24,853 nt of DNA. It comes from a virus. The notes under the pieces were generated by a model that had not been told where the DNA came from, did not search any database, and saw only the letters and a list, made by a program, of their open reading frames with translations. This document shows, piece by piece, positions 7,577-24,853 of the stretch (position 1 is its first letter; each line of letters starts with the position of its first letter). The position numbers were made by a program, and so were the translations under genes. The stretch covers positions 1 to 24,853 of the IMG/VR virus record IMGVR_UViG_3300010885_025362; one strand, written 5' to 3'.

Positions 7577-8233
7577 ATGAACAATACAGAAACCCCTATG
7601 CAACCGTCTCAGAATAATACACCTAAAAACCCCAACGAAGTTGGAGGATTCCATTTTGAAGGACATATCAAAATATTTGATCCCGAAACGGAGGAAATAT
7701 TCATTGATAAAAGAAATGCTATTCACTATGAAAATATCAGCATAGCATTGGCTCAGGCCCTCAGTAATCAAGGGCAGGGCATAATTTATGAAATGGTTTT
7801 TGGATCTGGCGGAACTACAGTAGATCCTACTGGGCTAATTGCATATTTAACACCTAATACTGTTGGAACAAATACAGGATTATACAATCAAACATATCAA
7901 AAAATAGTTGATCAAAATGCCACAGCCAACACAGACCCAGTGCGAAATAAAATGGAAGTTAGGCATATTAGCGGTGCAACTTATACAGATATTTTAATTT
8001 CGTGTTTATTAGACTACGGAGAACCCGACGGCCAAGAGGCATTTGATAACAGTCAAACATTGTCTGGAAATTTTATATTTGACGAACTAGGATTAAAATC
8101 TTACAGCAGTAACGGTGCAGGAAAATTATTAACTCATGTGGTTTTTCACCCTGTGCAGAAATCTTTGAATAGACTTCTACAAATAGATTATACAATTCGT
8201 ATACAAAGTTTAACTGGATTTAATGAGGTCTAA
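7577..8233 (+). CDS. Conserved marine myovirus structural-type protein (218 aa)
   Basis: A 218-residue soluble protein with no signal peptide, membrane segment or known catalytic motif. It opens with a low-complexity Asn/Pro/Gln-rich stretch (residues 1-20). A conserved-looking core follows, with a GHIKIFDPETEE strand, an RNAIHYEN segment and a FGSGGTTVDPTG loop. Its C-terminus is LTHVVFHPVQKSLNRLL followed by a short beta segment. I recall close relatives in T4-like cyanophages and pelagiphages, usually annotated as hypothetical or structural. Its place between the giant virion protein and the fibre-like paralogs supports a baseplate or fibre-attachment role, by inference only. The start has no strong Shine-Dalgarno sequence, so coupling to the gene ending 7 bases upstream is likely. 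A second ATG (residue 8) is possible. Confidence 0.8.
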   Translation: MNNTETPMQPSQNNTPKNPNEVGGFHFEGHIKIFDPETEEIFIDKRNAIHYENISIALAQALSNQGQGIIYEMVFGSGGTTVDPTGLIAYLTPNTVGTNTGLYNQTYQKIVDQNATANTDPVRNKMEVRHISGATYTDILISCLLDYGEPDGQEAFDNSQTLSGNFIFDELGLKSYSSNGAGKLLTHVVFHPVQKSLNRLLQIDYTIRIQSLTGFNEV

Positions 8234-10353: not shown

Positions 10354-10364
10354 GGTAAAAATAA

Positions 10365-12326: not shown

Positions 12327-12338
12327 TGGAGCAAATAA

Positions 12339-14471
12339 ATGGCATATGTAATTAATAAATTTAGCGGGCCGAGATTAACGGTATTAGAGGATGGTACACT
12401 AGATGTGTCTACCAGTATCGGCCTAGTAGGAAGAAATTATTCGGGATACGGCGAAGTTTTTAATGAAAATTTTTTGTTTTTGTTAGAAAATTTTGCCAAC
12501 GGAATAGCTCCCGCTAGACCGATTGCTGGACAAACTTGGTACAACACATCTACAAAAACACTTTATGCATATAGTGGGTCCGGTTGGGCCCCAACCGGCG
12601 GCGCAACCGTTTCAAATACTGCGCCAAATATTGCTGTTGACGCTGCTTCAACAAGTCCTATCCCCGGAGCATTATGGTACAAAGAGGATAGCCAACAGTT
12701 ATATATTAGCAGCGGATCAGCCTGGGAGCTTATTGGACCAGAGAATGTAACGGGGTTTAATAAAACCAAACTTCAAAGTTTAGCTATAAAAGATGTTGAC
12801 GGTAACAATCATCCGGCATCATTATTGTATGTTAATAATAATTGCCTTGCAATTATTTCCTATGATAATTTTGTCATCAACACCTCAGAAAATCTACCAG
12901 GATTTTCAAATATCCAGCGCGGAATAAATCTTCCAATAAATTCAAAATTAATAGGAAATGTAACAGGAAACGCCGATACAGCATCTAGTCTGGCTAATAC
13001 TGTTACAATTAATAGCGTGCCTTTTAATGGTAATACAAATGTCACAGTAAAAGCCAGCACTACCAATAGTTTGATAAGAGGTACGTATCTAACTGGCTCA
13101 AATTTTGACGGCTCAGTTGAGAGAACCTGGGGAGTTGATGCTACTCCAAATAACGTCATAGGCAAAATTGTTGCTAGAGACAGTGCTGGGGATTTTTCTG
13201 CTAGAAGAATTACAGCAGATTTCATAGGTAATCTTTCAGGCAATGTTAACACTGCTACGGGAACAAGTTTTTTTAACATAATCGAAGCTAATGAAATTAT
13301 AGGACGTAGCATCAGTGGCAATTCTAGAACATCAACTAAATTAGAAACAGCAAGAACAATTAATGGTGTGTCTTTTGATGGTACTGCAAATATAACAGTT
13401 CCAGCAGCAGCTAATACACTTACAGGAACAACTATTCCTGCCAATGTCACAACAAGTTTTCTAACATCTATAGGCACACTAAATGAACTAGTAACAGGAG
13501 AAATTGGTGTAAAAGTAGGTTCAAACAACCAACTGAGATTATATCTTGACTCAAACACCCCAACCATTGAATCTACTGTACAGAACAGCAGTTTAAATTT
13601 TGAGATTAATGATTCCCCTCAAGCGCAGAACAATCCCGGTATTGGATTTTTAACTTCGTCGGCAGCTGTTAGTCTTGGTGGTGATGCATTCCCAGCTTTT
13701 TCTAAAATTAAAAACGGAACGATCAATTTAGGATTACCGGATTATCCTTGGAATAAAATTTATGCTACTGAATTTAATGGTAGTTCAGTTAAAGCCAGTA
13801 ACTTAATGCCTACTACAGGATCAAGTACCATAACCATAAGTGCCGATTTAATTTTAACTGGAGATTTTACAATCCAAGGGACATCGACTTTTGTCAACTC
13901 TACAAACGTAACAGTAGCAGATAAGACACTAACACTTGGCGCAGGCTCATTGAATTCTTCAGCAGCGAACGGTGCAGGCGTAGTTATTGACGGCAGTTTT
14001 GCATCTTTTACATATGCAACAACAGGTGATAAATGGGTATCAAATAAGGATATTGACGTTGGAGCAAACACATTCCGTGGAGTTGCTACATCGGCGAAAT
14101 ATGCAGATCTTGCAGAAAACTACGTAGCTGACAACAACTATGAAGCAGGTGTAGTAGTAGAAATAGGCGGTAGTTGCGAAATAACTATAGCCAGTCAACA
14201 CAGCAGAAAAATTGCCGGAATAATTTCAACAAATCCTGCATATTTGATGAATGATAAATGCCAGGGTAAATATGTACTTGCTGTAGCGTTACAAGGACGA
14301 GTTCCTTGCAAAGTTAAAGGTAAGATTTCTAAAGGAGATCTTATGATAAGTGCCGGCAACGGATATGCAGAATCAAGTCAAAATCCACTGCTTGGGTCAT
14401 TAATAGGAAAATCTCTAGAAGATTTTAACGGCGAAGAAGGCGTTATCGAGGTCTTAGTAGGTCTAGGGTAA
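12339..14471 (+). CDS. Tail-fibre-like protein with peptidase-G2/chaperone-like C-terminal domain
   Basis: Third paralog. It has the shared N-terminal part (GLVGRNYSGYGEVFNENF, LLENFANG, GQTWYNTSTKTLYAYSG, GALWYKEDSQQLY). The central fibre region contains repeated GN..G...TAT/TAS turns and, at about residues 503-580, a GDFTIQGTSTFVNSTN / VADKTLTLGAG module related to the second paralog. From about residue 586 a distinct C-terminal domain starts with YADLAENYVADNNYE and runs through GIISTNPAYLMN, ALQGRVPCKVKG and KGDLMISA to the end. This resembles the intramolecular-chaperone / peptidase G2 type C-terminal domain of phage appendages, which in some fibres helps trimerisation and is then cleaved off. 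Whether it cleaves here cannot be told. GGAG precedes the ATG. A GC-rich palindrome lies inside the gene at 12580-12598. Confidence 0.84.
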   Translation: MAYVINKFSGPRLTVLEDGTLDVSTSIGLVGRNYSGYGEVFNENFLFLLENFANGIAPARPIAGQTWYNTSTKTLYAYSGSGWAPTGGATVSNTAPNIAVDAASTSPIPGALWYKEDSQQLYISSGSAWELIGPENVTGFNKTKLQSLAIKDVDGNNHPASLLYVNNNCLAIISYDNFVINTSENLPGFSNIQRGINLPINSKLIGNVTGNADTASSLANTVTINSVPFNGNTNVTVKASTTNSLIRGTYLTGSNFDGSVERTWGVDATPNNVIGKIVARDSAGDFSARRITADFIGNLSGNVNTATGTSFFNIIEANEIIGRSISGNSRTSTKLETARTINGVSFDGTANITVPAAANTLTGTTIPANVTTSFLTSIGTLNELVTGEIGVKVGSNNQLRLYLDSNTPTIESTVQNSSLNFEINDSPQAQNNPGIGFLTSSAAVSLGGDAFPAFSKIKNGTINLGLPDYPWNKIYATEFNGSSVKASNLMPTTGSSTITISADLILTGDFTIQGTSTFVNSTNVTVADKTLTLGAGSLNSSAANGAGVVIDGSFASFTYATTGDKWVSNKDIDVGANTFRGVATSAKYADLAENYVADNNYEAGVVVEIGGSCEITIASQHSRKIAGIISTNPAYLMNDKCQGKYVLAVALQGRVPCKVKGKISKGDLMISAGNGYAESSQNPLLGSLIGKSLEDFNGEEGVIEVLVGLG
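12580..12598. repeat. 19-base GC-rich perfect palindrome inside a fibre gene
   Basis: The arms CCGGTTGGG and CCCAACCGG flank a single central C. As RNA it would fold into an 8-bp stem with a GCC loop. It lies in the shared N-terminal module of the third fibre paralog, in an otherwise AT-rich region, and encodes part of SGSGWAPTGGA. Function unknown; chance is possible. Confidence 0.6.
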
Positions 14472-14473
14472 TT

Positions 14474-14489
14474 GATAAATATTTAAATA
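14474..14489 (+). promoter_or_regulatory. Possible T4-type late promoter (imperfect, two overlapping matches)
   Basis: GATAAATA (14474-14481) and TTTAAATA (14482-14489) each differ by one base from the T4-type late motif TATAAATA. They sit in the 34-base gap before the fourth fibre paralog, with GGAG at 14494-14497 and the ATG at 14506. The first match would leave a short leader that still includes the ribosome binding site. AT-rich sequence makes such matches common, so this is only a candidate. Confidence 0.35.
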
Positions 14490-14505
14490 ATGTGGAGTAA
14501 CTAGG

Positions 14506-16278
14506 ATGGCATATCAAGTAGATAAATTTAACGGTACTTTTCTTGTATCAGTAGGCGACGGAACTATTGATACCACAACTGATCTACGGTTTGTTGGTAA
14601 AAATTACACCGGGTACGGCGAAGTACAAAACGAAAATTTTCTACATCTCTTAGAAAATTTTGCAAATACTACTGCTCCTCCTAAGGTTATACCTGGACAA
14701 ATTTGGTATGACAGTGGAAATAAAAAATTAAAATTTTATGATGGTTCTAAATTTAGAGCTGCGAGCGGAGCTGAAATTGGAACAACAGCACCATCTGGAT
14801 TAACTACTGGAGATTTTTGGTGGGATACTAGTTCTCAACAGTTAAAAACGTGGAACGGAACAGAATTTATTTTAGTTGGGCCAGCAGCCAGTCCCGCAGT
14901 AGGTGAAGCCGCCGCAGTTCAAGACACGGTTAAAGGCGTTGATAATGTTAATCATTCTATACTTAAACTGGTTTCAGAAGGCGAAGTAATAGCAATTATT
15001 AGTTCAGCTAACGATTTCACATTAAATTCAACTACTCCAATTACTGGATTTACGTTGATTAAGAAAGGCATAACTTTAGTTAATACCAACGGTACAACTG
15101 GAGTTACATCAACTCCGCACTATTTCTGGGGCACAGCATCCAACGCACTTAAATTAGGAGGGTTTGCCGCAGCCGATTTTGTAAAATCAGGCGCAGCAAA
15201 TTTCCAAAGCGGTCTTTCTGTTTCTGATTCAGGAATCACAGTAGGCGATCAAAATGATTTACGCATATGGGTCGACGATGGAAACAGACCTATTATTGAA
15301 AATCAATTAGGCGAAGATATAACTTTTAGAATTAAAACACTAGACACATTTGTTGATGTATCTAAGATAAATCAAACTGGAGTGTATCCAGTAACTACCG
15401 GAACTATTGAACTGGGACAATCTTCTTTAGTTTGGAAACAAGTTTATGCTACTAAATTCTATGGAAATCTACAAGGTAATGTATTAAGATCGGATGGCAC
15501 TACAGTATTAGTAGATCATACTGCAGGAACATACAAAGGAAATTTGATAGCAACAGATTCCACTACTGCATACAATTCTACCACAAAGGTATTTACAGGT
15601 TCGTTTGTTGGAAATATTACAGGAAACGTCACTGGAAGTATCACAGGCAGTTCTACTTCAGCAACAACATTGGCTGGAGTTTCAGCAGCTGAAGCTGCAA
15701 CACCTGGTACTATACCAATAAGAAATTCATCTGGAAATATTCTTGCAACTAGATTTACGGGAACGGCTGATAGAGCTGATCAATTATTGGTAGGAGCCAC
15801 ATATAGAGCTACAGCTATTGCGGCCACAGCTGATACAATACCTGTTAGAAATGGTTCTGGGGATATATTTGCTGTAAAATTTAGAGGAACAGCCACCGCT
15901 GCTGAATATGCTGATCTAGCAGAAAAATATCTAGCTGATCACGGCTATGGAGTTGGCACAGTAGTAACAATTGGTGGTGATAAAGAAGTCACAGCCTGTA
16001 AGAGAGGAGATAGGGCTATTGGAGTTGTTTCAGCAAATCCTGCATTCATGATGAACAGCCAATTAGAAAACGGCACATATATAGCTTTAAAGGGACGTGT
16101 TCCTGTAAAGGTCATGGGTCCGGTAAAAAAGGGTGATCGATTAATTGCTGCAGATTGCGGCCGAGCAATGGTTTGTAACGATCTGTCAATGATACATAAT
16201 CAGGTTAATTGTTTTGCAATAGCATTAGAAAACAATACATACGAAAAAGAAAAAATTGTCGAAGCGTTAGTACTATAA
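14506..16278 (+). CDS. Tail-fibre-like protein, fourth paralog, with peptidase-G2/chaperone-like C-terminal domain
   Basis: Shortest of the four paralogs (590 residues). The N-terminal module is FVGKNYTGYGEVQNENF, LLENFANT, then GQIWYDSGNKKLKFYDG and GDFWWDTSSQQLKTWNG. The shaft is beta-rich, with a TIELGQSSLVWKQVYATKF unit and GNITGNVTGSITGS turns at about 370-383. From about residue 466 the C-terminal domain (YADLAEKYLADHGYG, GVVSANPAFMMN, ALKGRVPVKVMG, KKGDRLIAADCG) is clearly homologous to that of the upstream paralog. Its tail after residue 560 diverges (CNDLSMIHNQVNCFAIAL). The likely role is a virion fibre or adhesin. It is the only paralog preceded by more than 30 non-coding bases, which carry a possible late promoter. 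GGAG lies eight bases before the ATG. Confidence 0.84.
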   Translation: MAYQVDKFNGTFLVSVGDGTIDTTTDLRFVGKNYTGYGEVQNENFLHLLENFANTTAPPKVIPGQIWYDSGNKKLKFYDGSKFRAASGAEIGTTAPSGLTTGDFWWDTSSQQLKTWNGTEFILVGPAASPAVGEAAAVQDTVKGVDNVNHSILKLVSEGEVIAIISSANDFTLNSTTPITGFTLIKKGITLVNTNGTTGVTSTPHYFWGTASNALKLGGFAAADFVKSGAANFQSGLSVSDSGITVGDQNDLRIWVDDGNRPIIENQLGEDITFRIKTLDTFVDVSKINQTGVYPVTTGTIELGQSSLVWKQVYATKFYGNLQGNVLRSDGTTVLVDHTAGTYKGNLIATDSTTAYNSTTKVFTGSFVGNITGNVTGSITGSSTSATTLAGVSAAEAATPGTIPIRNSSGNILATRFTGTADRADQLLVGATYRATAIAATADTIPVRNGSGDIFAVKFRGTATAAEYADLAEKYLADHGYGVGTVVTIGGDKEVTACKRGDRAIGVVSANPAFMMNSQLENGTYIALKGRVPVKVMGPVKKGDRLIAADCGRAMVCNDLSMIHNQVNCFAIALENNTYEKEKIVEALVL

Positions 16279-16287
16279 GGAAAAATA

Positions 16288-17283
16288 ATGGCAGCAGTTG
16301 GCTCAACAATATCAGCATCAGATTATAACACAATACGTAATAAGATTATTGCAGTTATGGGTGCAGGAGGAACCAATCCTAATACTGGTTCAACGGACTT
16401 GTCTTTTGGGTACAATCAGACGATCAACTCAGTAGCAGTATCTTCAGCAAGTACAATAGCTAAATCACAGTTTGACAATTTACGATTTGACATATTAAAT
16501 GCCAAGTTACATCAGGACGGAACTACTCCAACAATAACCACAGTAAATGTGGGAGACGTAATCAACTATTCAGCTACTAGTCCAGTATTTCAATATGAAA
16601 CCATATCAGATCAGGCAATTGCAAACAGATTTAATATAGGTAGCGGGTATTATTCTTTAGCAGCAGCACAAACTAGCTATACAGGAGCCACTCTAACACC
16701 CCCAACGTTTGTTGGAGGTTGGAGTAGTTCGATTAGTAATGAAATTACAGTAACATGGCCATCTTCATCTGCTATGAGGTATTTTTTCAATACTGGAGGA
16801 AGGATAAGATTTTCCTGTAGTTTTGTACCGTCGCTGGCAAACTCACAAAATACAGTTTGGCAAAATACTTTAGCTAATGCTGGCACACAGAGCTTTGGAG
16901 CCATATCGAGCGGTTCAGGAGCAGTTAATTTTTATAATCTTACTACTTCGTTCCAAACTTGGTATACTGCGGTAAGTTCAGCTCCGTATTCGTCTAACCA
17001 ATGGTTACTTCAGGTTAGGGTATCTAGTGGAAACTGCACTACATCTTCAGTAACTGCAACGTCTATAGTGTTTAGGTTTGTATGGAATGACGGATACACA
17101 GATCCAGGCGGCCCTCCCCCAGGCGATCTTGCACAAGGTACTCTTACTCTTAGCATAGATGAACAGTATGCTGGTAGCCCCGCTGGGATTTCGTTGTTGC
17201 CAACAGTTAGCCCACCGACGGTACAACCGGCTTGGACTGTAACGCGACCTTTGTATACTGCGACATCTATTACAGGATCCTAA
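16288..17283 (+). CDS. Marine phage structural-type protein (331 aa)
   Basis: The N-terminus (MAAVGSTISASDYNTIRNKI, then TIAKSQFDNLRFDILNAKLHQDG at about residues 55-78) is an alpha-helical module I recognise from marine myovirus proteins of unassigned or structural annotation. It looks like a multimerisation or virion-attachment element. The middle (about 130-265) is Ser/Thr/aromatic-rich and probably beta-sandwich, with an FNTGGRIRFSCSF segment and an FRFVWNDGYTDPG end. A Pro/Gly-rich linker (GGPPPG) begins at about residue 274, followed by a 50-residue tail. There is no enzyme motif. AAGGA six bases before the ATG is a good ribosome binding site. As the last gene before the gap at 17284, it closes the structural block. 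A minor fibre or baseplate role is inferred from position and composition. Confidence 0.78.
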   Translation: MAAVGSTISASDYNTIRNKIIAVMGAGGTNPNTGSTDLSFGYNQTINSVAVSSASTIAKSQFDNLRFDILNAKLHQDGTTPTITTVNVGDVINYSATSPVFQYETISDQAIANRFNIGSGYYSLAAAQTSYTGATLTPPTFVGGWSSSISNEITVTWPSSSAMRYFFNTGGRIRFSCSFVPSLANSQNTVWQNTLANAGTQSFGAISSGSGAVNFYNLTTSFQTWYTAVSSAPYSSNQWLLQVRVSSGNCTTSSVTATSIVFRFVWNDGYTDPGGPPPGDLAQGTLTLSIDEQYAGSPAGISLLPTVSPPTVQPAWTVTRPLYTATSITGS

Positions 17284-17298
17284 TTTATACTTGACCTA

Positions 17299-17329
17299 TA
17301 AAGTAGCATATAAATAAACTGCTACTTTA
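17299..17329. repeat. 10-bp perfect inverted repeat enclosing the late promoter
   Basis: TAAAGTAGCA (17299-17308) is the exact reverse complement of TGCTACTTTA (17320-17329). The 11-base loop TATAAATAAAC holds the late promoter motif. The downstream arm is not followed by a T-run (next bases ATTAGGGG), so it does not look like a standard intrinsic terminator. It is in the only sizeable intergenic gap of the window. Confidence 0.75.
17309..17316 (+). promoter_or_regulatory. T4-type late promoter (TATAAATA)
   Basis: An exact match to the late promoter core TATAAATA recognised in T4-like phages by the gp55 sigma factor with the sliding clamp. It lies 27 bases before the ATG at 17344, and the AGGGGAAG ribosome binding site (17333-17340) sits between them. 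It is well placed to drive the enzyme block downstream. No sigma-70 pair with proper spacing is seen: the TTGACC at 17291 is too close. Confidence 0.65.
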
Positions 17330-17343
17330 ATTAGGGGAAGTAA

Positions 17344-17694
17344 ATGGATGACAGATTAAGCAAGGCTTTGGATTTTGCAAAGTTTAGAGAAACACTGGCA
17401 ATACAAAGAAAAACACTCAAAGAAAAAATTGATTCAAAACTCACCTATGGGTACAATGGTGGCATCTTTAAGATTGATAAATCTTTAATTGCATTTGTAG
17501 AAATACTTATTTCAAAACAAAGAACTGCTGATGTTCCCTTAATTGATGCCAATGACAATCCTGTATTAATTGATGATTTAGTAAAATTTCAAAATGAAAT
17601 TTTAGATAGATATTTTACCGCCACCTTTGAATATTTAAAAGAATATGAAAAGATCAAAAAAAGTCGTACAGTTGAAAAATTGTTGGATCTATGA
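17344..17694 (+). CDS. Small hypothetical phage protein (116 aa)
   Basis: I do not recognise a domain. It is a 116-residue, charged, mainly helical protein, rich in Lys, Asp and Glu, with no signal peptide or membrane segment. A SKLTYGYNGGIFKID segment at about residues 32-46 may be a beta-hairpin, and the C-terminal third (about 80-116) looks like a long helix. It has the strongest ribosome binding site of the window (AGGGGAAG at 17333-17340), consistent with being first in the operon driven by the late promoter at 17309. Its stop overlaps the start of the next gene as ATGA, so the two are probably translated together. It might be a scaffold or adaptor for the enzymes that follow; that is speculation. 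Confidence 0.75.
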   Translation: MDDRLSKALDFAKFRETLAIQRKTLKEKIDSKLTYGYNGGIFKIDKSLIAFVEILISKQRTADVPLIDANDNPVLIDDLVKFQNEILDRYFTATFEYLKEYEKIKKSRTVEKLLDL

Positions 17695-18551
17695 CCAAGG
17701 GCGTTTTAATATTTGCTCACAACAGTACAGCCGTAGACTACGGTAAGCTGGCCATAATTGCTGGCGGCCTTGCAAAAAAACATCTTAAAGTACCTGTGTC
17801 TTTGGTAGCAGATACAGGCACACTGGCCTGGCTGAAAGAATCAAAAACAATTACAAAAGCTAAAAAAATCTTTGACAAGATTATATCAATAGATCTTCCC
17901 TATACAACAAACAATCGCAAATTGCACGACGGGCTTCATTCTCAAACAATTCCATTTATAAATTCTAATAGATGTACTGCCTGGCAGCTATCGCCTTACG
18001 ATACCACACTATTAATAGATTCTGATTTTTTAATTTTTTCAGATCAGTTAAATCAATACTGGGATATTGACTCGAGTGTAATGATAGCAGAAAGCATGAA
18101 TGATCTACGGGGCGGTCGCGAAAAAATTTTAGATAAGAAAGTTTCTGAAACAGGAATACATCTTTTTTGGGCCACTACAGTAATGTTCAAAAAAAATAAT
18201 GAAAGTAAATTTTTCTTTCAACTAGTCGAATATATTAGAGACAACTATGCTTATTTTGCAGATCTTTTTAGATTTGATTCTAGACAATATAGAAATGACA
18301 TAGCATTTAGTGTAGCAAAACATATTATCAACGGTTTTGAAACTACACAATCCTACACACTGCCTCCATTAACAACAGTATTTGACCAAGATGTATTAAT
18401 TGATGTAGATCGCAACGGAAAACTAACTATAACAACAGATTTTGAAAACTCTGGAGATTACACAGCGTCTACAGTGCAGAACACTGATATACATATAATG
18501 AATAAGCAGAGCATTTTGAGGCACGCAGATTCTTTAATGAGGTTAATATGA
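17691..18551 (+). CDS. GT-A-like glycosyltransferase (GT8-like), first copy
   Basis: A 286-residue protein with a GT-A-type layout. The N-terminal strand GVLIFAHNS is followed by a DYGKLA helix and a VPVSLVAD strand. A hydrophobic strand then ends in the DxD-type motif LLIDSDFLIF (Asp110, Asp112), which in such enzymes binds the metal and nucleotide sugar. A later HLFWATTVMFKK strand and an NDIAFSVAKHII helix fit an acceptor-side region. It aligns along its length with the next gene (DY.KLA, P.D.T..D.D, F...A..I), so the two are tandem paralogs. Donor and acceptor are unknown. The start codon overlaps the upstream stop (ATGA). There is no signal peptide, so it should act in the cytoplasm. Family placement is by motif and length only. 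Confidence 0.72.
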   Translation: MTKGVLIFAHNSTAVDYGKLAIIAGGLAKKHLKVPVSLVADTGTLAWLKESKTITKAKKIFDKIISIDLPYTTNNRKLHDGLHSQTIPFINSNRCTAWQLSPYDTTLLIDSDFLIFSDQLNQYWDIDSSVMIAESMNDLRGGREKILDKKVSETGIHLFWATTVMFKKNNESKFFFQLVEYIRDNYAYFADLFRFDSRQYRNDIAFSVAKHIINGFETTQSYTLPPLTTVFDQDVLIDVDRNGKLTITTDFENSGDYTASTVQNTDIHIMNKQSILRHADSLMRLI

Positions 18552-19384
18552 ATTTTGGTTATCTACTATTTGTTAAAACATCTCAGAACACAGATTATTT
18601 AAAATTAGCATATGCACTGGCATTGAGTATTAAACATACTCAAAAGCCAGGATATGACAAAGTTGCGTTAGTTATTGATGATCCTAGTCTGTTAAAAAAA
18701 TTAAACTCCGCCTGGGTTTTTGATCATGTTATCGAATGGGGACAAGAAGACGGTTGGGATGGTCGCAGCTGGATGGATCATTTAACTCCCTTTGATTATA
18801 CAGTATGTCTTGATGCGGATATGTTATTTTTAAGAGACTATAGTCATTGGATAGATTATTTTATTGAAAACACTGATTTGTATGTCTGTAACAAGTCGTA
18901 TACCTACCGTGATGAAATTGTTACCAATAAGTTTTATAGAAAAACATTTGTTGAATCTAACTTACCAGATCTTTATAGTTTTTATACTTTTTTCAAAAAA
19001 AATGACTTGTCGTTGGAATTTTTTTCAATGGGTAGATATATTATAAAAAATCAAGATGTATTTGCTAATTTATATTTAAAACATCGACCAAGCATAGTTG
19101 GTACTGATGAAGCATTTGCATTATCAGCAAAAATCTTAGACATCCAAGATCAAATTTCTTATGAATTAGATTTTCCAAAAATAGTACATTTAAAACCCAT
19201 GGTGCAAAATTGGCCGTGGCAATCAGATCGAGTAACGGATCATGTTGGATTTTATTTTAACGAAGAAGCTCAATTAAAAATAGGTAATTATAAACAAGAT
19301 TCAATAATACACTATGTTGAAAAAGATCTAATGACAGATGAGTATATAAACATTTTAGAGGAATTGGTATGGAACAACAATTAA
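18548..19384 (+). CDS. GT-A-like glycosyltransferase (GT8-like), second copy
   Basis: A 278-residue paralog of the preceding protein: NTDYLKLAYALALSIKHT matches its DYGKLA region and VALVIDD its second strand. The DxD-type motif is VCLDADMLFL (Asp89, Asp91). The region FANLYLKHRPSIVGTDEAFALSAKI matches the FADLF...NDIAFSVAKHI region of the first copy, and HLKPMVQNWPWQ near residue 215 may complete the active site. It therefore probably transfers a sugar from a nucleotide donor to an unknown acceptor. Both copies keep an intact Asp pair, so both may be active, perhaps adding successive sugars. GAGGT lies just before the ATG, which overlaps the upstream stop (ATGA). Its own end overlaps the next gene by 16 bases. 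Confidence 0.74.
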   Translation: MNFGYLLFVKTSQNTDYLKLAYALALSIKHTQKPGYDKVALVIDDPSLLKKLNSAWVFDHVIEWGQEDGWDGRSWMDHLTPFDYTVCLDADMLFLRDYSHWIDYFIENTDLYVCNKSYTYRDEIVTNKFYRKTFVESNLPDLYSFYTFFKKNDLSLEFFSMGRYIIKNQDVFANLYLKHRPSIVGTDEAFALSAKILDIQDQISYELDFPKIVHLKPMVQNWPWQSDRVTDHVGFYFNEEAQLKIGNYKQDSIIHYVEKDLMTDEYINILEELVWNNN

Positions 19385-19956
19385 TATTTGAAGACTTATA
19401 TACCGATAAAAATAAAATAGATTTCTATGCGTTTTACAGTCAGACAGACGGTTCAGTATTTGAAATATTTCCAGGTTTTCCAACAACTACCGATAAAAAA
19501 TTTGTTAAAGTTGATGCTGAAATATTAGACAGTATAGAATCTGGACAGTCTAATATTTTTTCATACTATGTAGACATTAAAACACAAAACCCTCAATTAC
19601 AGAAAAAAGCAAATTCCAATTTTGTTTTAACAAAGATTGACGATGTCTTACACAGAGTCATTGAGAAAAAATGGTCTAAAATAAAAAAACCAGACGTACA
19701 AATAAAATATTCAAAGAAAAACGAAGTACTAGAATTTAAAATTAATCCGTCTATTAAAAACATTCAATGGCCGGGCGAGCAAGAAATGATATTTTTAGTA
19801 ACAGGGTATAACGACCCAAATAGTGTAAAACAAATGATTAGATTTACAGTTGATGAATTAGCCAGTTTTCCGCAGATACATAAAATTAAATTGAGATCAA
19901 AATTTAGTATTTTTACACGCAGACTGTTTACAAACTACACGTTGGAAATAAAATGA
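19369..19956 (+). CDS. Hypothetical protein between glycosyltransferase pairs (195 aa)
   Basis: I do not recognise this protein. It is Lys- and Phe-rich with alternating polar and hydrophobic stretches that suggest a mixed, mostly beta fold (FYAFYSQTDGSVFEIFPGF, KFVKVDAEIL, VQIKYSKKNEVLEFKI). There is no signal peptide, membrane segment, cysteine cluster or DxD motif in a glycosyltransferase-like context. A good ribosome binding site (GAGGA, 19358-19362) lies six bases before the ATG, inside the end of the upstream gene, and its stop overlaps the next start as ATGA. Being locked between two glycosyltransferase pairs by overlaps on both sides suggests a partner or acceptor-binding role in the same process. 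That is inference from position only. Confidence 0.75.
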   Translation: MEQQLIFEDLYTDKNKIDFYAFYSQTDGSVFEIFPGFPTTTDKKFVKVDAEILDSIESGQSNIFSYYVDIKTQNPQLQKKANSNFVLTKIDDVLHRVIEKKWSKIKKPDVQIKYSKKNEVLEFKINPSIKNIQWPGEQEMIFLVTGYNDPNSVKQMIRFTVDELASFPQIHKIKLRSKFSIFTRRLFTNYTLEIK

Positions 19957-20852
19957 AAATCATTGAATTTGATGTAATATTCCTCAGCTATGACGAACCA
20001 AATGCCGAGTTGCATTATGCTGATTTATGCAATAAAGTACCATGGGCTAAACGAGTACACGGAGTTAAAGGATCTGACCACGCTCATAAAGCCGCTGCAG
20101 AATTATCAGATACAGATTGGTTTGTAACTGTTGATGCTGATAATATAGTTGACAGCAGATTTTTTAATATTAATTTAGATATGAGAGATCCTAAGATACA
20201 GGTCTATGGATGGTGTGGCCGTAATGTAATTAACGGATTACGCTACGGCAACGGCGGATTAAAAATTTGGAAAAAAGATTTTGTGTTGAATATGAAAACA
20301 CACGAAAACTCAGACAGCGATCGCGGCCAGGTAGATTTTTGTTGGGAAGATGGATATAAAAATTTTCCATTGAGCTTTAGTGATAGCATTATAACAGCAA
20401 GCCCATTTCAGGCCTGGAGAGCAGGATTTCGTGAAGGTGTTAAAATGACCTTGCTTGACGGAGTTCGAATTCCGCCTCAAGAAATCAAAGAACGCATTTG
20501 GTGGCACAACATTCATAGACTACGTATGTGGTCTACAGTTGGAGCTCATGAAGAAAACGGCAAGTATGCAGTTCTTGGTGCACGTATGGGAACGTGGATG
20601 ACCAATTGTACTGACTGGAACTATGTTGATGTTAGAGACTTTGAGATTTTAAAATCTATATACGAAGAAAAAGTCAATCACACAGTTGTAGAACAAGATG
20701 CACAAGATTACGGAACAAAAATAAAACATCAATTAGGATTAGACTGGCCGTGGTTAACTCCTCAACACAGTCAATATACTCTAGATTTATACAACGAGAC
20801 CATGAATCTTAATGACACTTACTTTAGGATGCCGGTGCCTGCAGATGTATGA
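19953..20852 (+). CDS. Glycosyltransferase-like protein with DAD motif (299 aa)
   Basis: The N-terminus FDVIFLSYDEPNAE is a first Rossmann-like strand and loop. It is followed by a basic AKRVHGVKG segment (residues 32-40), HAHKAAAE, and a strand ending in the DxD-type motif WFVTVDADNIVD (Asp61, Asp63). RYGNGGLKIWKK and SPFQAWRAGFREGVKM follow, then an RLRMWSTVGAHEENGKYAV segment. The layout is that of a GT-A nucleotide-sugar transferase of the GT2-like kind. All these elements recur in the same order in the C-terminal part of the next gene, so the two are paralogs. I recall many marine myoviruses carrying this family, usually as hypothetical proteins. ATGA overlap upstream; GGAA lies just before the start. 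Substrate unknown. Confidence 0.7.
   Translation: MKIIEFDVIFLSYDEPNAELHYADLCNKVPWAKRVHGVKGSDHAHKAAAELSDTDWFVTVDADNIVDSRFFNINLDMRDPKIQVYGWCGRNVINGLRYGNGGLKIWKKDFVLNMKTHENSDSDRGQVDFCWEDGYKNFPLSFSDSIITASPFQAWRAGFREGVKMTLLDGVRIPPQEIKERIWWHNIHRLRMWSTVGAHEENGKYAVLGARMGTWMTNCTDWNYVDVRDFEILKSIYEEKVNHTVVEQDAQDYGTKIKHQLGLDWPWLTPQHSQYTLDLYNETMNLNDTYFRMPVPADV
20046..20072 (+). repeat. 27-base repeat, copy 1 (glycosyltransferase pair)
   Basis: Matches 21289-21315 at 26 of 27 bases and encodes the AKRVHGVKG motif. The flanks are far more diverged, so this short block is unusually similar at DNA level. Confidence 0.7.
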
Positions 20853-21912
20853 TATTTTTTATGTGTCTAAAACTACTGGAAATGACACAGACTGGGCCGC
20901 AGTTAAGTCTAAGTACTCAACAGCTCAGCGCCTATCAAACATAGAATCATTTGATCAAATTAAATCTAGAGCATTTACCAAAATGTTTTGGGTTATTTGG
21001 GATGATATAATTTTAAACGACTCTTTTGATCTATTAGAATACGCAGCAACAAAGTGGGATGACCAGTATGTTCACGTATTTAAAAATGGTGAGCATTATG
21101 ACGGTGTAGTATTATTTTCTAAAAATATAATCATAAGCAAGAAAGAATTTGATTATAGATTTTTCATGAATAAAAAAGAATTAGATATAATAGCAAGTAA
21201 TCCCAAGCCGTATGATGTTGTTTTTATAAGTTATAATGAATCAAATGCTGATATTAATTATGAAAATTTAAAATTAAAAAGACCTGATGCTAAACGAGTA
21301 CACGGAGTAAAAGGAATTCATAATGCTCACATAGAGGCAGCAAAATTAGCAACAACTGAAATGTTTTGGGTTGTTGATGCTGATGCAGAATTAGTAGACA
21401 ATTTTAATTTTGAAATAACATATTTTCCGCACTATGATGTAGGAAATCGGTCAACACAAATTTCAACAGTTCATGTATGGTTGGGACAAAATCCCATTAA
21501 TGATTTAGTATATGGGTACGGTGGAGTTAAATTATTACCTAGAACACTTACAATTAATATGGATACAATGTCATCAGATATGACAACATCTATAAGCAAA
21601 AATTTTAAAGCAATAGATCAAGTTTCAAACATTACAGTATTTGATACCGATCCTTTTAATACATGGAAATCAGCATTTAGAGAATGCGTTAAACTGAGTA
21701 GTAGAGCCATTGATCGTCAAAACGAAGAAGAAACTTCTCGTAGATTAGATATCTGGTGCAGTCTAGGAGACGACAAATTATTTGGCAAAGATGCTATACG
21801 AGGAGCCAAAGAAGGCAGATTGTACGGTGAAACACATAAAGGAAACATTGAAGCATTGATAAAAATTAATGACTTTGATTGGCTCAAAGGAATGTTTGAC
21901 AATGGCAAGTGA
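20845..21912 (+). CDS. Glycosyltransferase-like protein with degenerate N-terminal duplicate (355 aa)
   Basis: I chose the ATG at 20845 over the one at 20812 because MYDIFYVSK begins the first recognisable strand; this gives an 8-base overlap with the upstream gene. Neither ATG has a clear ribosome binding site. The C-terminal two thirds (from about residue 122, KPYDVVFISYNESNAD) repeat the family core: AKRVHGVKG, AHIEAAKLATTEMFWVVDADAELVD with Asp178 and Asp180, YGYGGVKLLP, and DPFNTWKSAFRECVKL. The N-terminal third (YDIFYVSK, TKMFWVIWDDIILNDSF, YVHVF.NG, YDGVVLFSK) looks like a shortened second copy in which DAD has become WDD (residues 52-54). It may have lost catalysis and become a binding or regulatory domain. 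Probable sugar transferase; donor and acceptor unknown. Confidence 0.7.
   Translation: MYDIFYVSKTTGNDTDWAAVKSKYSTAQRLSNIESFDQIKSRAFTKMFWVIWDDIILNDSFDLLEYAATKWDDQYVHVFKNGEHYDGVVLFSKNIIISKKEFDYRFFMNKKELDIIASNPKPYDVVFISYNESNADINYENLKLKRPDAKRVHGVKGIHNAHIEAAKLATTEMFWVVDADAELVDNFNFEITYFPHYDVGNRSTQISTVHVWLGQNPINDLVYGYGGVKLLPRTLTINMDTMSSDMTTSISKNFKAIDQVSNITVFDTDPFNTWKSAFRECVKLSSRAIDRQNEEETSRRLDIWCSLGDDKLFGKDAIRGAKEGRLYGETHKGNIEALIKINDFDWLKGMFDNGK
21289..21315 (+). repeat. 27-base repeat, copy 2 (glycosyltransferase pair)
   Basis: Partner of 20046-20072, with a single silent T/A difference. It lies at the corresponding position of the paralogous domain in the next gene. Confidence 0.7.
21886..21891 (+). 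promoter_or_regulatory. Ribosome binding site that decides the first radical SAM start
   Basis: AAAGGA lies ten bases before the ATG at 21902 and inside the end of the upstream gene. It supports that start over the in-frame ATG at 21869. Confidence 0.55.
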
Positions 21913-23257
21913 AGAACAAAAATATAAAAAAGTTATTGAAATTTTAAACTCGGTGAGTCCTAGTTTTTGTTTAGCAAAATGGCATCAACTAACACTATAT
22001 TTACAAAATGGATTTAATCATAGTTGTCACCATCCGAGTCCTCACAAGGTTTCTCTATCGGAGTTAGAAACAAATCACAAGGCTCTGCACAATACACAAT
22101 ATAAAAAACAACAGATGCAAAAGATGCTAGACGGAGAACGACCTAGCGAGTGTGATTATTGTTGGAAGGCCGAAGATGCTGGACATATAAGTGATAGAGT
22201 ATACAAGAGTGCCTCGGCCTGGGCAAAAATAAATTTTGAGTCTGTTATAGAAAATAAAACTAAAGATGTCAATCCTGCATATTTAGAAGTTAGTTTTAGT
22301 AATGCCTGTAATTTTAAATGTGCGTATTGCAGCCCGGATTTAAGCAGTCAATGGTTTGAAGAAATACACAGTCACGGACCGTACCCAACATCAAACAGAT
22401 ACAATAATTTTGATTGGTTTAAACGAATAGGAAAAATGCCTATTCCAATCAAGGAACATAATCCGTATGTAGAAGCATTTTGGAAATGGTGGCCTGAGAT
22501 GTATGAAGATCTGCATACATTAAGATTAACTGGCGGCGAACCCCTATTAAGTAAAGATGCATGGAAGATGTTGGATTATATTGAATCAACTCCTAACACC
22601 AATCTAGTATTTGCTCTTAATACCAATCTATGTGTTCCTGACAATTTAATAGATAGATTAATACCTAAAATTCAAAATATTTCTAGGGACTCTAAAGAGT
22701 TTCAATTTTTTACCAGTGGAGAAGCAATAGGGGCAGCTGGAGAATATATAAGATACGGGCTTAATTACAATCAGTGGACTAATAATTTAGAAAAGATTTT
22801 AGACAATACAAACGTGATTGTCGCAATTATGACCACAGTAAATCTAACAAGCATAACTACATATACAGACTTTATACGATATATTCTTGATCTTCGTGGA
22901 AAATACAACAAGGGAGCGACATTTAATAAGGTACAGTTCATGACTAATTTTTTACGCTATCCTGAATTTTTATCATTAACTTTGTTAGATCAAAAAAACA
23001 AAGATTTATTTACAAAAGATGTAGAAAATTTAATCAAAGAAAGAGGAGTTTGGGACGGATATGCTACCTTAACATTTTCTGAAGTTGATCAATTAAAGCG
23101 TATGATCGATTATATGAATGTTACTGATGCCAACCAAACACAATTAAGAAAAGATTTTGCTGCATTTATTACTGAATATGATCAAAGACGCAACACAGAC
23201 TTTAACAAAACATTTCCAACTCTAACAGAATTTTATCAATTATGCCAACAAACATAA
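21902..23257 (+). CDS. Radical SAM protein with N-terminal twitch-like cysteine region, copy 1
   Basis: 451 residues from the ATG at 21902. The radical SAM signature is NACNFKCAYC (Cys136, Cys140, Cys143; CX3CX2C), which binds the [4Fe-4S] cluster that cleaves S-adenosylmethionine. The SAM-binding TGGEP motif is at residues 210-214. Before the core lies an N-terminal region with SFCLAKW (Cys23), HSCHH (Cys42) and CDYCW (Cys84, Cys87), a four-cysteine set that could hold an auxiliary iron-sulphur cluster. This is the architecture of the N-terminal-twitch radical SAM proteins seen in phage and environmental genomes. A shared TSGE segment follows the core. Such enzymes often modify peptides or small molecules, but the substrate here is unknown. 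The gene overlaps the upstream gene by 11 bases. Confidence 0.87.
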   Translation: MASEEQKYKKVIEILNSVSPSFCLAKWHQLTLYLQNGFNHSCHHPSPHKVSLSELETNHKALHNTQYKKQQMQKMLDGERPSECDYCWKAEDAGHISDRVYKSASAWAKINFESVIENKTKDVNPAYLEVSFSNACNFKCAYCSPDLSSQWFEEIHSHGPYPTSNRYNNFDWFKRIGKMPIPIKEHNPYVEAFWKWWPEMYEDLHTLRLTGGEPLLSKDAWKMLDYIESTPNTNLVFALNTNLCVPDNLIDRLIPKIQNISRDSKEFQFFTSGEAIGAAGEYIRYGLNYNQWTNNLEKILDNTNVIVAIMTTVNLTSITTYTDFIRYILDLRGKYNKGATFNKVQFMTNFLRYPEFLSLTLLDQKNKDLFTKDVENLIKERGVWDGYATLTFSEVDQLKRMIDYMNVTDANQTQLRKDFAAFITEYDQRRNTDFNKTFPTLTEFYQLCQQT

Positions 23258-24570
23258 AACGAACAATCGAAATCATAAATGAAATTAGCCCTAGTTTTTG
23301 TGCAGCCAAGTGGTATAATGCTACAATATGGTTAGGCAACGGAAGAACTGCAAGCTGTCATTTGCCACCAGCTCATAGCATTTTGGTATCTGAGATTATG
23401 AAAAATCCTAGTGCATTACACAACACTGCTTTCAAAAAAGATCGAAGATTGGAAATGTTAACAGGCAAACGCAGTGACGAATGCGCCTATTGTTGGACAG
23501 TTGAGGACAACGCCGAGCCTAATATCTATAGTGATCGCGTATATAAAACTCGAATTTATCAGGAAACTGAAATACTGCAATTATCTAAACTAGATCCTCA
23601 GGCAGATATTGATCCTAAGACATTAGAAATTAGTTTTGACAATTTGTGTAATCTAAGTTGTACTTATTGCAATTCAGAATTTAGTACCACATGGGCTAGC
23701 GATATTAAAGTTAATGGCCCTTATGCAGATTTAAAAACAACCGGCGGCGGAGCATTTCAAAACGCAGGAGATCTCGCATTGCCCTACGGCATCAAAAACG
23801 AAAATAACCCTTACATTGAGGCATTTTTTAAATGGTTTCATGGTAGTCTTAAAACCAATTTGCAAGAACTACGGATCACTGGTGGTGAGCCTACACGCAG
23901 TCCTTGGTTTTGGAAACTGTTAGACGAATGTCAAGATACAAATTTTGATTTTGCTGTTAACAGCAATCTCATAATGGATGAAGTAAAATTAAATCAACTT
24001 ATTTCTGCTAGTAAAAAATTTAAGAAATTTGATTTGTATACTAGCGGAGAGGGATATGGCGCTCATGCAGAATTTATTAGATGGGGATTGGATTATGACT
24101 TGTGGAGAAACAATTTAATTCGATTTGCCAACGAAGGTCAATACAGCATGATACACGTAATGATGACCATCAGTGCATTGAGTATTTGGTCGATAACAGA
24201 GTTTATGACAGATATATTAGAATTACGAAAAAAGTTTAACGGGCATCAATTTCATATGAGTCTTAATCTAGTTCGATTTCCTAGTTTTCAAAATTTAAAT
24301 GTCTTGCCCGAAGATCTAAAACAAGCACAAGCAGATAAAATTCAAACTTGGCTAAGTACTGCTGTTGGACTTAGTTCTTCCGAAACTAATCAAATAGAAA
24401 GAATTATAGCATATCTTCGTAACGTTAATAGAAGTCAAGAAGATACAGATAGTCAAGAAAATAAACAACACGATTTAAAAAGTTTTACACGTCAATACGC
24501 TGATAGAAAAAATGTTAATCTGTCTACAGTGTTTCCAACAGAATTTACAGAATGGTTTAATACAATATGA
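23242..24570 (+). CDS. Radical SAM protein with N-terminal twitch-like cysteine region, copy 2
   Basis: 442 residues, a tandem paralog of the preceding protein. NLCNLSCTYC gives Cys136, Cys140 and Cys143, the same residue numbers as copy 1, and TGGEP is at 213-217. The N-terminal cysteine set is also kept: SFCAAKW (Cys20), ASCHL (Cys39), CAYCW (Cys81, Cys84). An extra Gly-rich stretch (TTGGGAF, about 166-172) precedes the NPYIEAFFKWF helix. The TSGEGYGAHAEFIRWGLDYD segment matches TSGEAIGAAGEYIRYGLNYN in copy 1. The start lies within the previous gene (16-base overlap) and no Shine-Dalgarno sequence is visible, so translation likely depends on coupling. Both clusters seem intact, so this is probably an active enzyme; the target is unknown. 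Confidence 0.86.
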   Translation: MPTNIKRTIEIINEISPSFCAAKWYNATIWLGNGRTASCHLPPAHSILVSEIMKNPSALHNTAFKKDRRLEMLTGKRSDECAYCWTVEDNAEPNIYSDRVYKTRIYQETEILQLSKLDPQADIDPKTLEISFDNLCNLSCTYCNSEFSTTWASDIKVNGPYADLKTTGGGAFQNAGDLALPYGIKNENNPYIEAFFKWFHGSLKTNLQELRITGGEPTRSPWFWKLLDECQDTNFDFAVNSNLIMDEVKLNQLISASKKFKKFDLYTSGEGYGAHAEFIRWGLDYDLWRNNLIRFANEGQYSMIHVMMTISALSIWSITEFMTDILELRKKFNGHQFHMSLNLVRFPSFQNLNVLPEDLKQAQADKIQTWLSTAVGLSSSETNQIERIIAYLRNVNRSQEDTDSQENKQHDLKSFTRQYADRKNVNLSTVFPTEFTEWFNTI

Positions 24571-24853
24571 GTAAAGATAACTTTTGCATAGTACCGTGGA
24601 TACATCTTAATACAGAGCCTAACGGGCGTGTCAAGCCCTGCTGTGCGTATCTTGGAGAAGAGTTTGGAAACTTAAAAGACTCTACCCTTGAAGAAATATG
24701 GAATAACCGCCATATGAAATCAATGCGTAGAAGTTTTTTAAAAAATGAAATACCAAACGGCTGTTTAACCTGTACTAAAAAAGAAGACAGCGGCGGAGTA
24801 AGCTATCGTATGGCAGTTACAGATCGATTTAAACAGCACATTGAAAAAGCTAA
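24567..24853 (+). CDS. Third N-terminal-twitch radical SAM protein, N-terminal part (3' partial)
   Basis: The frame starts at ATG 24567, overlapping the upstream stop as ATGA, and stays open to the window end (95 full codons). It reads NFCIVPWIHLNTEPNGRVK at the start, then a PCC pair (Cys25, Cys26) and, further on, GCLTC (Cys66, Cys69). This FC..PW.H...P.G...PCC pattern is the classic N-terminal twitch region of radical SAM proteins. The radical SAM core itself would lie beyond the window, so the assignment rests on this region and on the two radical SAM neighbours. It is less similar to copies 1 and 2 than they are to each other. No clear ribosome binding site. Confidence 0.75.
   Translation, partial: MSKDNFCIVPWIHLNTEPNGRVKPCCAYLGEEFGNLKDSTLEEIWNNRHMKSMRRSFLKNEIPNGCLTCTKKEDSGGVSYRMAVTDRFKQHIEKA

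What the first reader, a model, noticed from the sequence alone, without database searches (positions are those of the whole stretch)
17344..24853. Late-promoted cassette of paired glycosyltransferases and radical SAM enzymes beside the adhesin genes
One operon holds two glycosyltransferase-like pairs, an unknown protein and at least three twitch-type radical SAM proteins, directly after four fibre-like adhesins and behind a late promoter motif. Late timing points to modification of virion proteins or a surface polymer rather than to early host takeover. Glycosylated or radical-SAM-modified phage fibres would be notable. Function is inferred from context only.
Basis: partly seen in the sequence, partly recalled or inferred. 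Interest (0 to 1): 0.75.

Follow-up and report, generated by a model that had tools for sequence, protein, structure and literature searches.

The report
Fibre-linked sugar and radical-enzyme gene module
Behind the tail-fibre genes of a widespread, uncultured group of T4-related phages sits a fixed set of sugar-transfer genes, followed by radical-chemistry enzymes; it is switched on late behind an RNA safety catch, and most likely decorates the phage's own fibres, although what it modifies has not been shown.

Summary
Window 17344-24853 is one overlapping operon: p1 (116 aa), paralogous GT8-like p2/p3, unknown p4, GT-A-fold p5 and homologous p6, then N-twitch radical SAM proteins p7, p8 and p9 (p9 cut by the contig end). 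It follows four paralogous fibres and a fifth, f5. With p5, p3 or p1 as bait in IMG/VR, f5-p1-p2-p3-p4-p5 kept its order wherever the retrieved contig reached; deeply diverged phage contigs keep it too. f5, p1, p3 and p5 have no match in 50,697 isolate phages.

The late promoter is conserved (127/130 loci) and lies inside a hairpin that hides p1's ribosome site in read-through RNA, as at T4 genes e and soc.

Two corrections. The radical-SAM block is always beside p6 (83/83) but inverted in 16 loci (at least two events), and where its upstream end was seen it is appended to the replication-side operon; its late timing is therefore not conserved. Also, p5/p6-type GTs plus twitch radical SAM genes occur without fibres in Bdellovibrionia genomes.

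Best reading: a late, fibre-coupled glycosylation module with radical-SAM tailoring of the glycan or fibre; substrate unproven. Host-surface polymer modification, published for pelagimyophages, is the main rival.

The parts
1..7569 (+). very large virion structural / baseplate-like protein (5' end cut)
   Evidence: PHROG 10938 (E 1.8e-47) and baseplate wedge phrog_708; relatives in PA5oct-, RaK2- and 121Q-type jumbo phages and cyanophages
7577..8233 (+). conserved phage protein of unknown function
   Evidence: phrog_11259 E 2.5e-70
8236..16278 (+). four paralogous fibre-like proteins f1-f4 (8236-10353, 10365-12326, 12339-14471, 14506-16278) sharing an N-terminal domain
   Evidence: tail/collar fibre PHROGs; shared N-terminus visible in the translations
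16288..17283 (+). f5, 331 aa, Ser/Thr-rich (27%) fibre-like protein; always directly upstream of p1
   Evidence: upstream of p1 in 69/69 loci; no match in isolate phages (L079 copy used as query); S+T fraction
17295..17308 (+). 5' arm of the hairpin that sequesters the p1 ribosome site in read-through RNA
   Evidence: mean z -4.0 over 38 clusters; own arms pair better than swapped arms, Wilcoxon p 3.5e-8
17309..17317 (+). T4-type late promoter TATAAATAA lying in the hairpin loop
   Evidence: TAAATAA in 127/130 p1 upstream regions
17320..17337 (+). 3' arm of the hairpin, running into the Shine-Dalgarno AGGGG (17333-17337)
17344..17694 (+). p1, 116 aa, unknown; conserved between f5 and the GT genes
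   Evidence: alignment A4, 48-96% identity to the window copy; no match in isolate phages
17691..18551 (+). p2, GT8-like protein
   Evidence: paralog of p3; PF01501 hits in 2 of 23 relatives
18548..19384 (+). p3, GT8-like protein
   Evidence: 546 or more relatives in viral contigs
19369..19956 (+). p4, 195 aa, unknown; two beta-rich domains predicted
   Evidence: AlphaFold pLDDT 86, pTM 0.57; no PDB match above Z 6; three uncharacterised phage proteins in BFVD at E <= 1e-3
19953..20852 (+). p5, GT-A-fold protein with DxD; among the most conserved proteins of these phages
   Evidence: 525 relatives; 85-90% identity among three large contigs against 89-93% for gp23; GT-A fold
20845..21912 (+). 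p6: one GT-A-like half-module (about 20845-21222) followed by a p5-like GT domain (21223-21912)
   Evidence: module homologous to the N-half of the GT domain (hhalign 96%, E 1e-9); 0-7 modules in 67 relatives
21902..23257 (+). p7, N-twitch radical SAM protein with CX3CX2C
   Evidence: NF033640 351 bits
23242..24570 (+). p8, N-twitch radical SAM protein with CX3CX2C
   Evidence: NF033640 278 bits
24567..24853 (+). p9, N-terminal SPASM/twitch part of a third radical SAM protein, cut by the contig end
   Evidence: PF13186 E 6e-13; NF033640 103 bits over 95 aa; full-length orthologue in L048 at 15239-16453

Best explanation
p1-p6 is a late, fibre-coupled glycosylation module of T4-related phages with a jumbo-phage-like major capsid protein. 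Shown: conserved order after f5, GT-A fold of p5, late promoter, RNA hairpin. Inferred: in read-through transcripts from the fibre genes a hairpin hides the p1 ribosome site; once late RNA polymerase starts inside the hairpin loop the site is free, and the overlapping genes p1-p6 are made together (translational coupling inferred from the overlaps). The GTs (p2/p3, p5, p6) then build a short glycan on a phage fibre protein, most likely the Ser/Thr-rich f5, with p1 and p4 as adaptor or assembly partners. The neighbouring twitch radical SAM enzymes oxidise, epimerise or otherwise tailor sugars of that glycan, or the fibre peptide itself. Target and chemistry are inference, not result.
For: f5-p1-p2-p3-p4-p5 without exception in retrieved loci from independent baits and the same order in phage-like contigs with p5 at only 40-53% identity. 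f5, p1, p3 and p5 are absent together from 50,697 isolate phages, so the fibre and the enzymes travel as a guild. Late promoter and lineage-specific complementary arms; other late promoters of the same phages lack an SD-hiding hairpin. p5 is nearly as constrained as the major capsid protein although the fibres diverge. Proteins carry no strongly hydrophobic segment (maximum 19-residue hydropathy about 1.3) and no polymerase, flippase or nucleotide-sugar gene was seen in the operon, which suits tailoring of a soluble acceptor. Best Foldseek match of p5 is the PBCV-1 GT of major-capsid glycosylation (2p72, E 2.4e-4). Phage-encoded virion glycosylation exists in mycobacteriophages (cited in PMC12619734). 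A twitch radical SAM enzyme acting on a sugar-like cyclitol exists (BtrN, PMC9012708). An Fe-S carrier (PF01521) is encoded in the relative G002 with orthologues in G001 and G003.
Against: No virion proteomics. No acceptor motif identified. GTs homologous to p5/p6 sit with twitch radical SAM genes but without fibres in Bdellovibrionia genomes, so this pair of functions does not need a fibre. The radical SAM block is not always co-transcribed with p1-p6. The published view of comparable pelagimyophage GTs is O-antigen modification. The 2p72 match is not specific: many GT-A enzymes score alike. No GT activity has been measured, and GT8 assignment of p2/p3 is weak.
Confidence: 0.42

Rival explanations
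1. The module changes a host surface polymer (LPS O-chain or capsule) during infection, so that progeny do not re-adsorb to debris and competing phages are excluded. Fibres and GTs sit together because both concern the same receptor.
For: Published proposal for GT8-rich host-recognition islands of pelagimyophages (PMC7029224). p5 homologues in Ruegeria, Tateyamaria, Cribrihabitans and Sulfitobacter occur in bacterial genomes without fibres, in some beside a GT-like gene. p5/p6 plus radical SAM genes occur without fibres in Bdellovibrionia.
Against: Receptor-changing functions are usually early (general knowledge), whereas here late onset is enforced by a conserved promoter-hairpin device. p5 is nearly invariant across phages whose fibres differ strongly; a host-receptor-specific GT should vary with host. 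No membrane or lipid-carrier enzymes were seen in the operon.
Confidence: 0.3
2. Two functional units that happen to meet at a module junction: p1-p6 belongs to the fibre module, while the radical SAM block is an accessory island at the boundary to the replication side, serving something else (for example Fe-S or peptide chemistry).
For: The block is inverted in 16 of 83 loci, in at least two independent events on the p5 tree, and follows the plf gene with no or almost no gap in the five inverted loci where plf was in view. Copy number is variable (1-6 per locus). Radical-SAM-rich T4-like phages were earlier read as Fe-S metabolism (PMC5332604).
Against: Presence is near-invariant rather than accessory: 83/83 next to p6 and 50/51 next to plf with a bait from outside the cassette. 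The same GT plus twitch radical SAM pairing recurs in bacteria and in diverged phage contigs.
Confidence: 0.15
3. The GTs and radical SAM enzymes make a diffusible glycopeptide (RiPP-like) or small molecule released at lysis.
For: SPASM/twitch radical SAM enzymes often mature RiPPs (PMC9012708); weak NCBIfam similarity to several maturase families.
Against: No precursor peptide, protease or exporter was noticed in the ORF lists, although short ORFs under 60 aa were not searched; would not explain the strict link to f5 and the fibres.
Confidence: 0.07
4. The GTs glycosylate phage DNA against host restriction.
For: Phage GTs often do this, and the relative G002 encodes a QueE-like protein (phrog_2076, E 7e-51).
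Against: Late fibre-side location and late promoter; DNA-modifying GTs are normally made with the replication genes (general knowledge). QueE lies elsewhere in the contig.
Confidence: 0.06

Closest known systems
Host recognition cluster of pelagimyophages (PMC7029224)
   Same: Variable island after a large baseplate-type gene, holding tail fibres, GTs (GT8 most common) and radical SAM cassettes in T4-like aquatic phages.
   Different: Here f5-p1-p2-p3-p4-p5 is fixed in order and p5 is near-invariant rather than hypervariable; f5, p1, p3 and p5 have no match in the isolate-phage collection; gp23 is closest to jumbo T4-related phages (Sinorhizobium Phosso 77%, Vibrio 2.275.O 74%, PA5oct 72%, GAP32 69%).
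N_Twi_rSAM (NCBIfam NF033640)
   Same: p7 and p8 are members (351 and 278 bits against a cut-off of 170), p9 in part.
   Different: The family has no assigned substrate in the model's description; several different members stand in one locus beside GTs.
T4 late genes with RBS-sequestering hairpins (e, soc, 49, I-TevI)
   Same: TATAAATA-type late promoter placed in the 5' part of a hairpin that hides the ribosome site in longer transcripts (PMC3014915, PMC2988022).
   Different: Here it stands before a GT operon behind fibre genes, and the motif core is often CTAAATAA.
Phage-encoded virion glycosylation in mycobacteriophages (cited in PMC12619734) and chlorovirus capsid GTs (2p72)
   Same: Virus-encoded GTs acting on virion proteins; p5 shares the GT-A fold with the PBCV-1 enzyme.
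   Different: Those systems target capsid or tail tube; fibre targeting and radical SAM partners are not part of them (own knowledge; the primary paper was not held).
GT plus twitch radical SAM clusters of Bdellovibrionia genomes
   Same: p5-like and p6-like GTs beside a full-length N_Twi_rSAM (L200, 434 bits) and two further radical SAM genes, one of a kind also seen in the phage loci.
   Different: No f5, p1-p3 or fibres nearby; large contigs with housekeeping neighbours (up to 936 kb).

Membership tests
N_Twi_rSAM (NF033640) | score above the curated cut-off of 170 bits | tested here: met
   p7 351, p8 278 bits; p9 103 bits because only 95 aa remain
N_Twi_rSAM (NF033640) | radical SAM cysteine motif CX3CX2C | tested here: met
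   p7 CNFKCAYC, p8 CNLSCTYC; the p9 core lies beyond the contig end
GT-A glycosyltransferase (p5, p6) | GT-A nucleotide-sugar fold | tested here: met
   p5 model against GT-A enzymes, VIA Z 10-10.6, rmsd 3-5 A over about 140-215 residues; Foldseek E 2.4e-4 to 2p72; p6 by homology
GT-A glycosyltransferase (p5, p6) | DxD metal/sugar motif conserved | tested here: met
   D61 and D63 of p5 invariant in 34 sequences including p6
GT-A glycosyltransferase (p5, p6) | sugar transfer activity | not testable with these tools
   needs enzymology
GT8 (p2, p3) | match to Glyco_transf_8 or a GT8 structure | tested here: inconclusive
   2 of 23 p2 relatives hit PF01501 (best E 8e-4); p2 profile against glycogenin E 0.18; p3 no GT8 hit
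T4-type gated late gene | late promoter TATAAATA/CTAAATA close upstream | tested here: met
   TAAATAA core in 127/130; the same core precedes gp22-like and fibre genes
T4-type gated late gene | 5' part of an SD-sequestering hairpin lost in late transcripts | tested here: met
   predicted SD unpaired 0.19 against 0.71; own arms -15.2 against swapped -9.6 kcal/mol, p 3.5e-8; RNAalifold on a MAFFT alignment found no consensus because stem register varies
T4-type gated late gene | mapped late 5' end and reduced translation of long RNA | not testable with these tools
   needs transcript mapping and reporter assay
Pelagimyophage host recognition cluster | fibres, GTs and radical SAM genes in one island after the large baseplate-type gene | tested here: met
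Pelagimyophage host recognition cluster | phage belongs to the pelagimyophages; island ends at neck gene gp14 | tested here: inconclusive
   gp23 of relatives closest to jumbo T4-related phages; gp14 not located; downstream neighbour is the unassigned plf gene
Phage virion glycosylation | glycan on a virion protein made by phage GTs | not testable with these tools
   needs virion mass spectrometry
RiPP radical-SAM system | dedicated precursor peptide beside the maturase | not tested
   ORFs shorter than 60 aa were not searched

The most novel reading that the evidence does not exclude
The phage fibre f5 carries a glycan whose sugars (or whose peptide) are remodelled by phage-encoded twitch radical SAM enzymes: a radical-SAM-tailored virion, with the glycan's reach or pattern set by p6, whose number of GT-like modules varies from 0 to 7.
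Probability: 0.2. Interest if true: 0.85.

Novelty: new variant of a known kind. Interest (0 to 1): 0.62.

Why it matters
Hundreds of uncultured aquatic phage contigs carry this module, yet isolate collections do not. A GT (p5) nearly as conserved as the major capsid protein inside the otherwise fast-changing host-recognition region suggests a modification important for infection. If fibres are glycosylated and radical-SAM-tailored, adsorption and host range could not be predicted from fibre sequence alone. The GT plus twitch radical SAM pairing in Bdellovibrionia offers a route to the chemistry of a large radical SAM family without assigned substrate.

Tried and rejected
(1) Isolate-phage matches: tblastn of p5, p8, p3, L079 p1 and L079 f5 found none; p7 matches only radical SAM proteins of Vibrio KVP40-type phages at 21-26% identity. 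(2) PDB sequence-profile searches: p3 and p5 found nothing, p4 only a chance-level hit, p2 only glycogenin at E 0.18. (3) A first reading that 16 of 44 loci lack radical SAM genes was wrong: I had searched one strand only; both strands gave 83/83, with 16 inverted. (4) RNAalifold on the hairpin alignment gave no consensus because stem register varies; replaced by the arm-swap test, in which 10 of 49 clusters do not favour their own arms. (5) TATAAATA in the window is not enriched over shuffles, so the promoter claim rests on positional conservation. (6) p4: no known fold found in the PDB (a second look at Foldseek's own matches, not proof of novelty). (7) SGNH-hydrolase-like genes between radical SAM genes in relatives are a motif reading of mine, not supported by Pfam or NCBIfam. 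(8) A joint alignment of p6 modules with GT domains (A3) mixed paralogous regions and was not used.
Full report
WHAT IS THERE. The window is a 24,853-base virus record. The first half codes for a very large virion protein, a conserved phage protein, four paralogous fibre-like proteins (f1-f4) and a fifth protein f5. From 17344 to the contig end nine ORFs overlap head to tail: p1, p2, p3, p4, p5, p6, p7, p8 and the first 95 residues of p9. p7 and p8 are N-twitch radical SAM proteins well above the NCBIfam cut-off and p9 is the start of a third. p2 and p3 are paralogs with weak GT8 support. p5 and the C-terminal part of p6 share one domain with an invariant DxD. The AlphaFold model of p5 (pLDDT 84.5) has a GT-A fold; Foldseek ranks a chlorovirus GT of major-capsid glycosylation first (E 2.4e-4), but many other GT-A enzymes align about as well. 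p1 and p4 remain without a known family; p4 is predicted as two beta-rich domains that resemble only uncharacterised phage proteins.

CONSERVATION. With p5 as bait IMG/VR returned 525 relatives, the best 80 kept, all with p4, p5 and p6 and the same order where the contig reaches. With p3 as bait all 51 loci with more than 4 kb upstream had fibre genes there, and p5 was in every locus with room. With p1 as bait f5 stood upstream in 69 of 69, p2 next in 80 of 80, p3 in 77 of 77, p4 and p5 in 74 of 74. These are the closest relatives kept by the tool, so they do not exclude exceptions farther away. A bait outside the cassette (plf, the gene on the far side of the radical SAM block) gave radical SAM genes in 50 of 51 loci and a p5/p6-type GT in 39 of 45; of the six others, four are still inside the radical SAM block when the retrieved stretch ends, one (L409) shows radical SAM genes but no GT within 10 kb, and L397 is a real exception within 10 kb. 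More distant phage-like contigs in genome bins (L188, L189, L191, L193, L194, L196, L198, L202), with p5 at about 40-53% identity, keep f5-p1-p2-p3-p5-radical SAM; p4 is recognised in some only. f5, p1, p3 and p5 have no match in 50,697 isolate phages. gp23 of relatives is nearest to jumbo T4-related phages such as Phosso, 2.275.O, PA5oct and GAP32; related contigs reach 353 kb. p5 is 85-90% identical among three large contigs, close to gp23 at 89-93%, ranking 4th, 9th and 22nd among 101-108 shared proteins, while the fibres in the same stretch are mostly at 30-65% to the window.

TIMING AND THE RNA CATCH. A TAAATAA late-promoter core sits before p1 in 127 of 130 loci and precedes gp22-like and fibre genes in large relatives. 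Around it lie complementary arms. In 38 sequence clusters the fold has a mean z of -4.0 against dinucleotide shuffles; the predicted chance that the Shine-Dalgarno is unpaired is 0.19 in read-through RNA and 0.71 in RNA starting just after the promoter. Each lineage's own arms pair better (-15.2 kcal/mol) than arms swapped between lineages (-9.6; 39 of 49 better; Wilcoxon p 3.5e-8), which shows compensatory change without needing an alignment; a consensus fold on an alignment failed because stem register varies. Clusters share ancestry, so the p-value is indicative. Other late promoters of the same phages do not show the device. T4 genes e, soc, 49 and I-TevI use this arrangement. So p1, and through overlapping genes probably p2-p6, is kept silent in read-through RNA and made late; transcription itself was not measured.

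THE RADICAL SAM BLOCK. It lies next to p6 in 83 of 83 loci with enough sequence, but in 16 it is inverted; on a p5 tree this needs at least two changes. In the five inverted loci where the upstream plf gene was in view the block follows it with no or almost no gap, on the strand of replication-side genes such as the 5'-3' exonuclease. Its late expression is therefore not a conserved property. Up to about six radical SAM genes per locus and up to 18 hits per contig occur. An A-type Fe-S carrier (PF01521) and a QueE-like protein occur elsewhere in G002, with orthologues in G001 and G003. Radical-SAM-rich T4-like phages with Fe-S genes were reported before.

OUTSIDE PHAGES. In a class-wide search of Bdellovibrionia, 11 of 144 genomes have p5/p6-type GTs. 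Several carry them beside a twitch radical SAM gene and further radical SAM genes, without fibres, on large contigs with housekeeping neighbours. p5 homologues in Ruegeria, Tateyamaria, Cribrihabitans and Sulfitobacter stand in bacterial genomes without radical SAM genes nearby, in some near a GT-like gene. The GT plus radical SAM pairing can thus work without fibres; fibre coupling through f5, p1, p2 and p3 was seen only in phages.

P6. The stretch before its GT domain is built from 0 to 7 copies of an approximately 105-residue module homologous to the N-terminal half of the GT domain itself (hhalign 96%, E 1e-9); copy number is cleanly quantised in 67 distinct proteins. A carrier or acceptor-binding ruler is a guess.

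MECHANISM. Shown: gene order, families and fold, promoter and RNA device, constraint on p5, orientation switches, bacterial counterparts. Inferred: the GTs glycosylate a fibre protein, f5 being the prime candidate because it is inseparable from the module and Ser/Thr-rich (27%); radical SAM enzymes tailor the product, as BtrN does for a cyclitol. The main rival is host-surface polymer modification, as proposed for pelagimyophages. Late gating and the near-invariance of p5 speak against it, the fibre-free bacterial clusters speak for it. I give 0.42 to 0.30.

NOVELTY. Fibres with GTs and radical SAM cassettes in one island are known. New here, as far as I could find in the libraries searched: the fixed f5-p1-p2-p3-p4-p5 guild, the hairpin-gated late operon, the inverting radical SAM block, the modular p6, and the Bdellovibrionia counterparts. 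I class it as a new variant of a known kind.

Noticed in passing
window 20845-21222; p6 of L003-L187 and L287-L364: p6 carries 0 to 7 tandem copies of an approximately 105-aa GT-half module before its GT domain, cleanly quantised across 67 distinct proteins.
   Followed up: partly
window 17295-17337: Late promoter inside an SD-hiding hairpin with lineage-specific complementary arms; absent at other late promoters of the same phages.
   Followed up: yes
L120, L122-L127, L134, L135, L138, L150, L152-L154, L158, L159: The radical SAM block is inverted relative to p1-p6, in at least two independent events.
   Followed up: yes
L200, L207, L279, L280, L281, L283, L285: Bdellovibrionia genomes with GT plus twitch radical SAM clusters and no fibres; L281 has eight radical-SAM-model matches in 18 kb.
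   Followed up: partly
L048 18452-20186, L079 14598-15314, L072 15752-18198, L188 11560-12288: SGNH-hydrolase-like proteins (GDSF/GCSxT motifs) between the radical SAM genes of relatives; no Pfam or NCBIfam assignment except DUF6473 at E 1e-3.
   Followed up: no
L087 18304-18627; L088 15454-16314: An A-type Fe-S carrier (PF01521) and a QueE-like radical SAM protein in relative G002, with orthologues in G001 and G003.
   Followed up: partly
L397 4082-13970: A relative whose junction after plf holds no radical SAM or GT within 10 kb but other genes, including what look like a sugar-nucleotide dehydrogenase and an aminotransferase: a candidate natural cassette-less or replaced variant.
   Followed up: no
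G001 230-258 kb: The 281-kb contig has a second cluster of about ten radical SAM matches far from the fibre locus.
   Followed up: no
L201, L203, L204, L205: p5 homologues in Rhodobacteraceae genomes, in L201, L203 and L205 beside a GT-like gene and/or a 160-180-aa protein with a conserved WPF motif.
   Followed up: no
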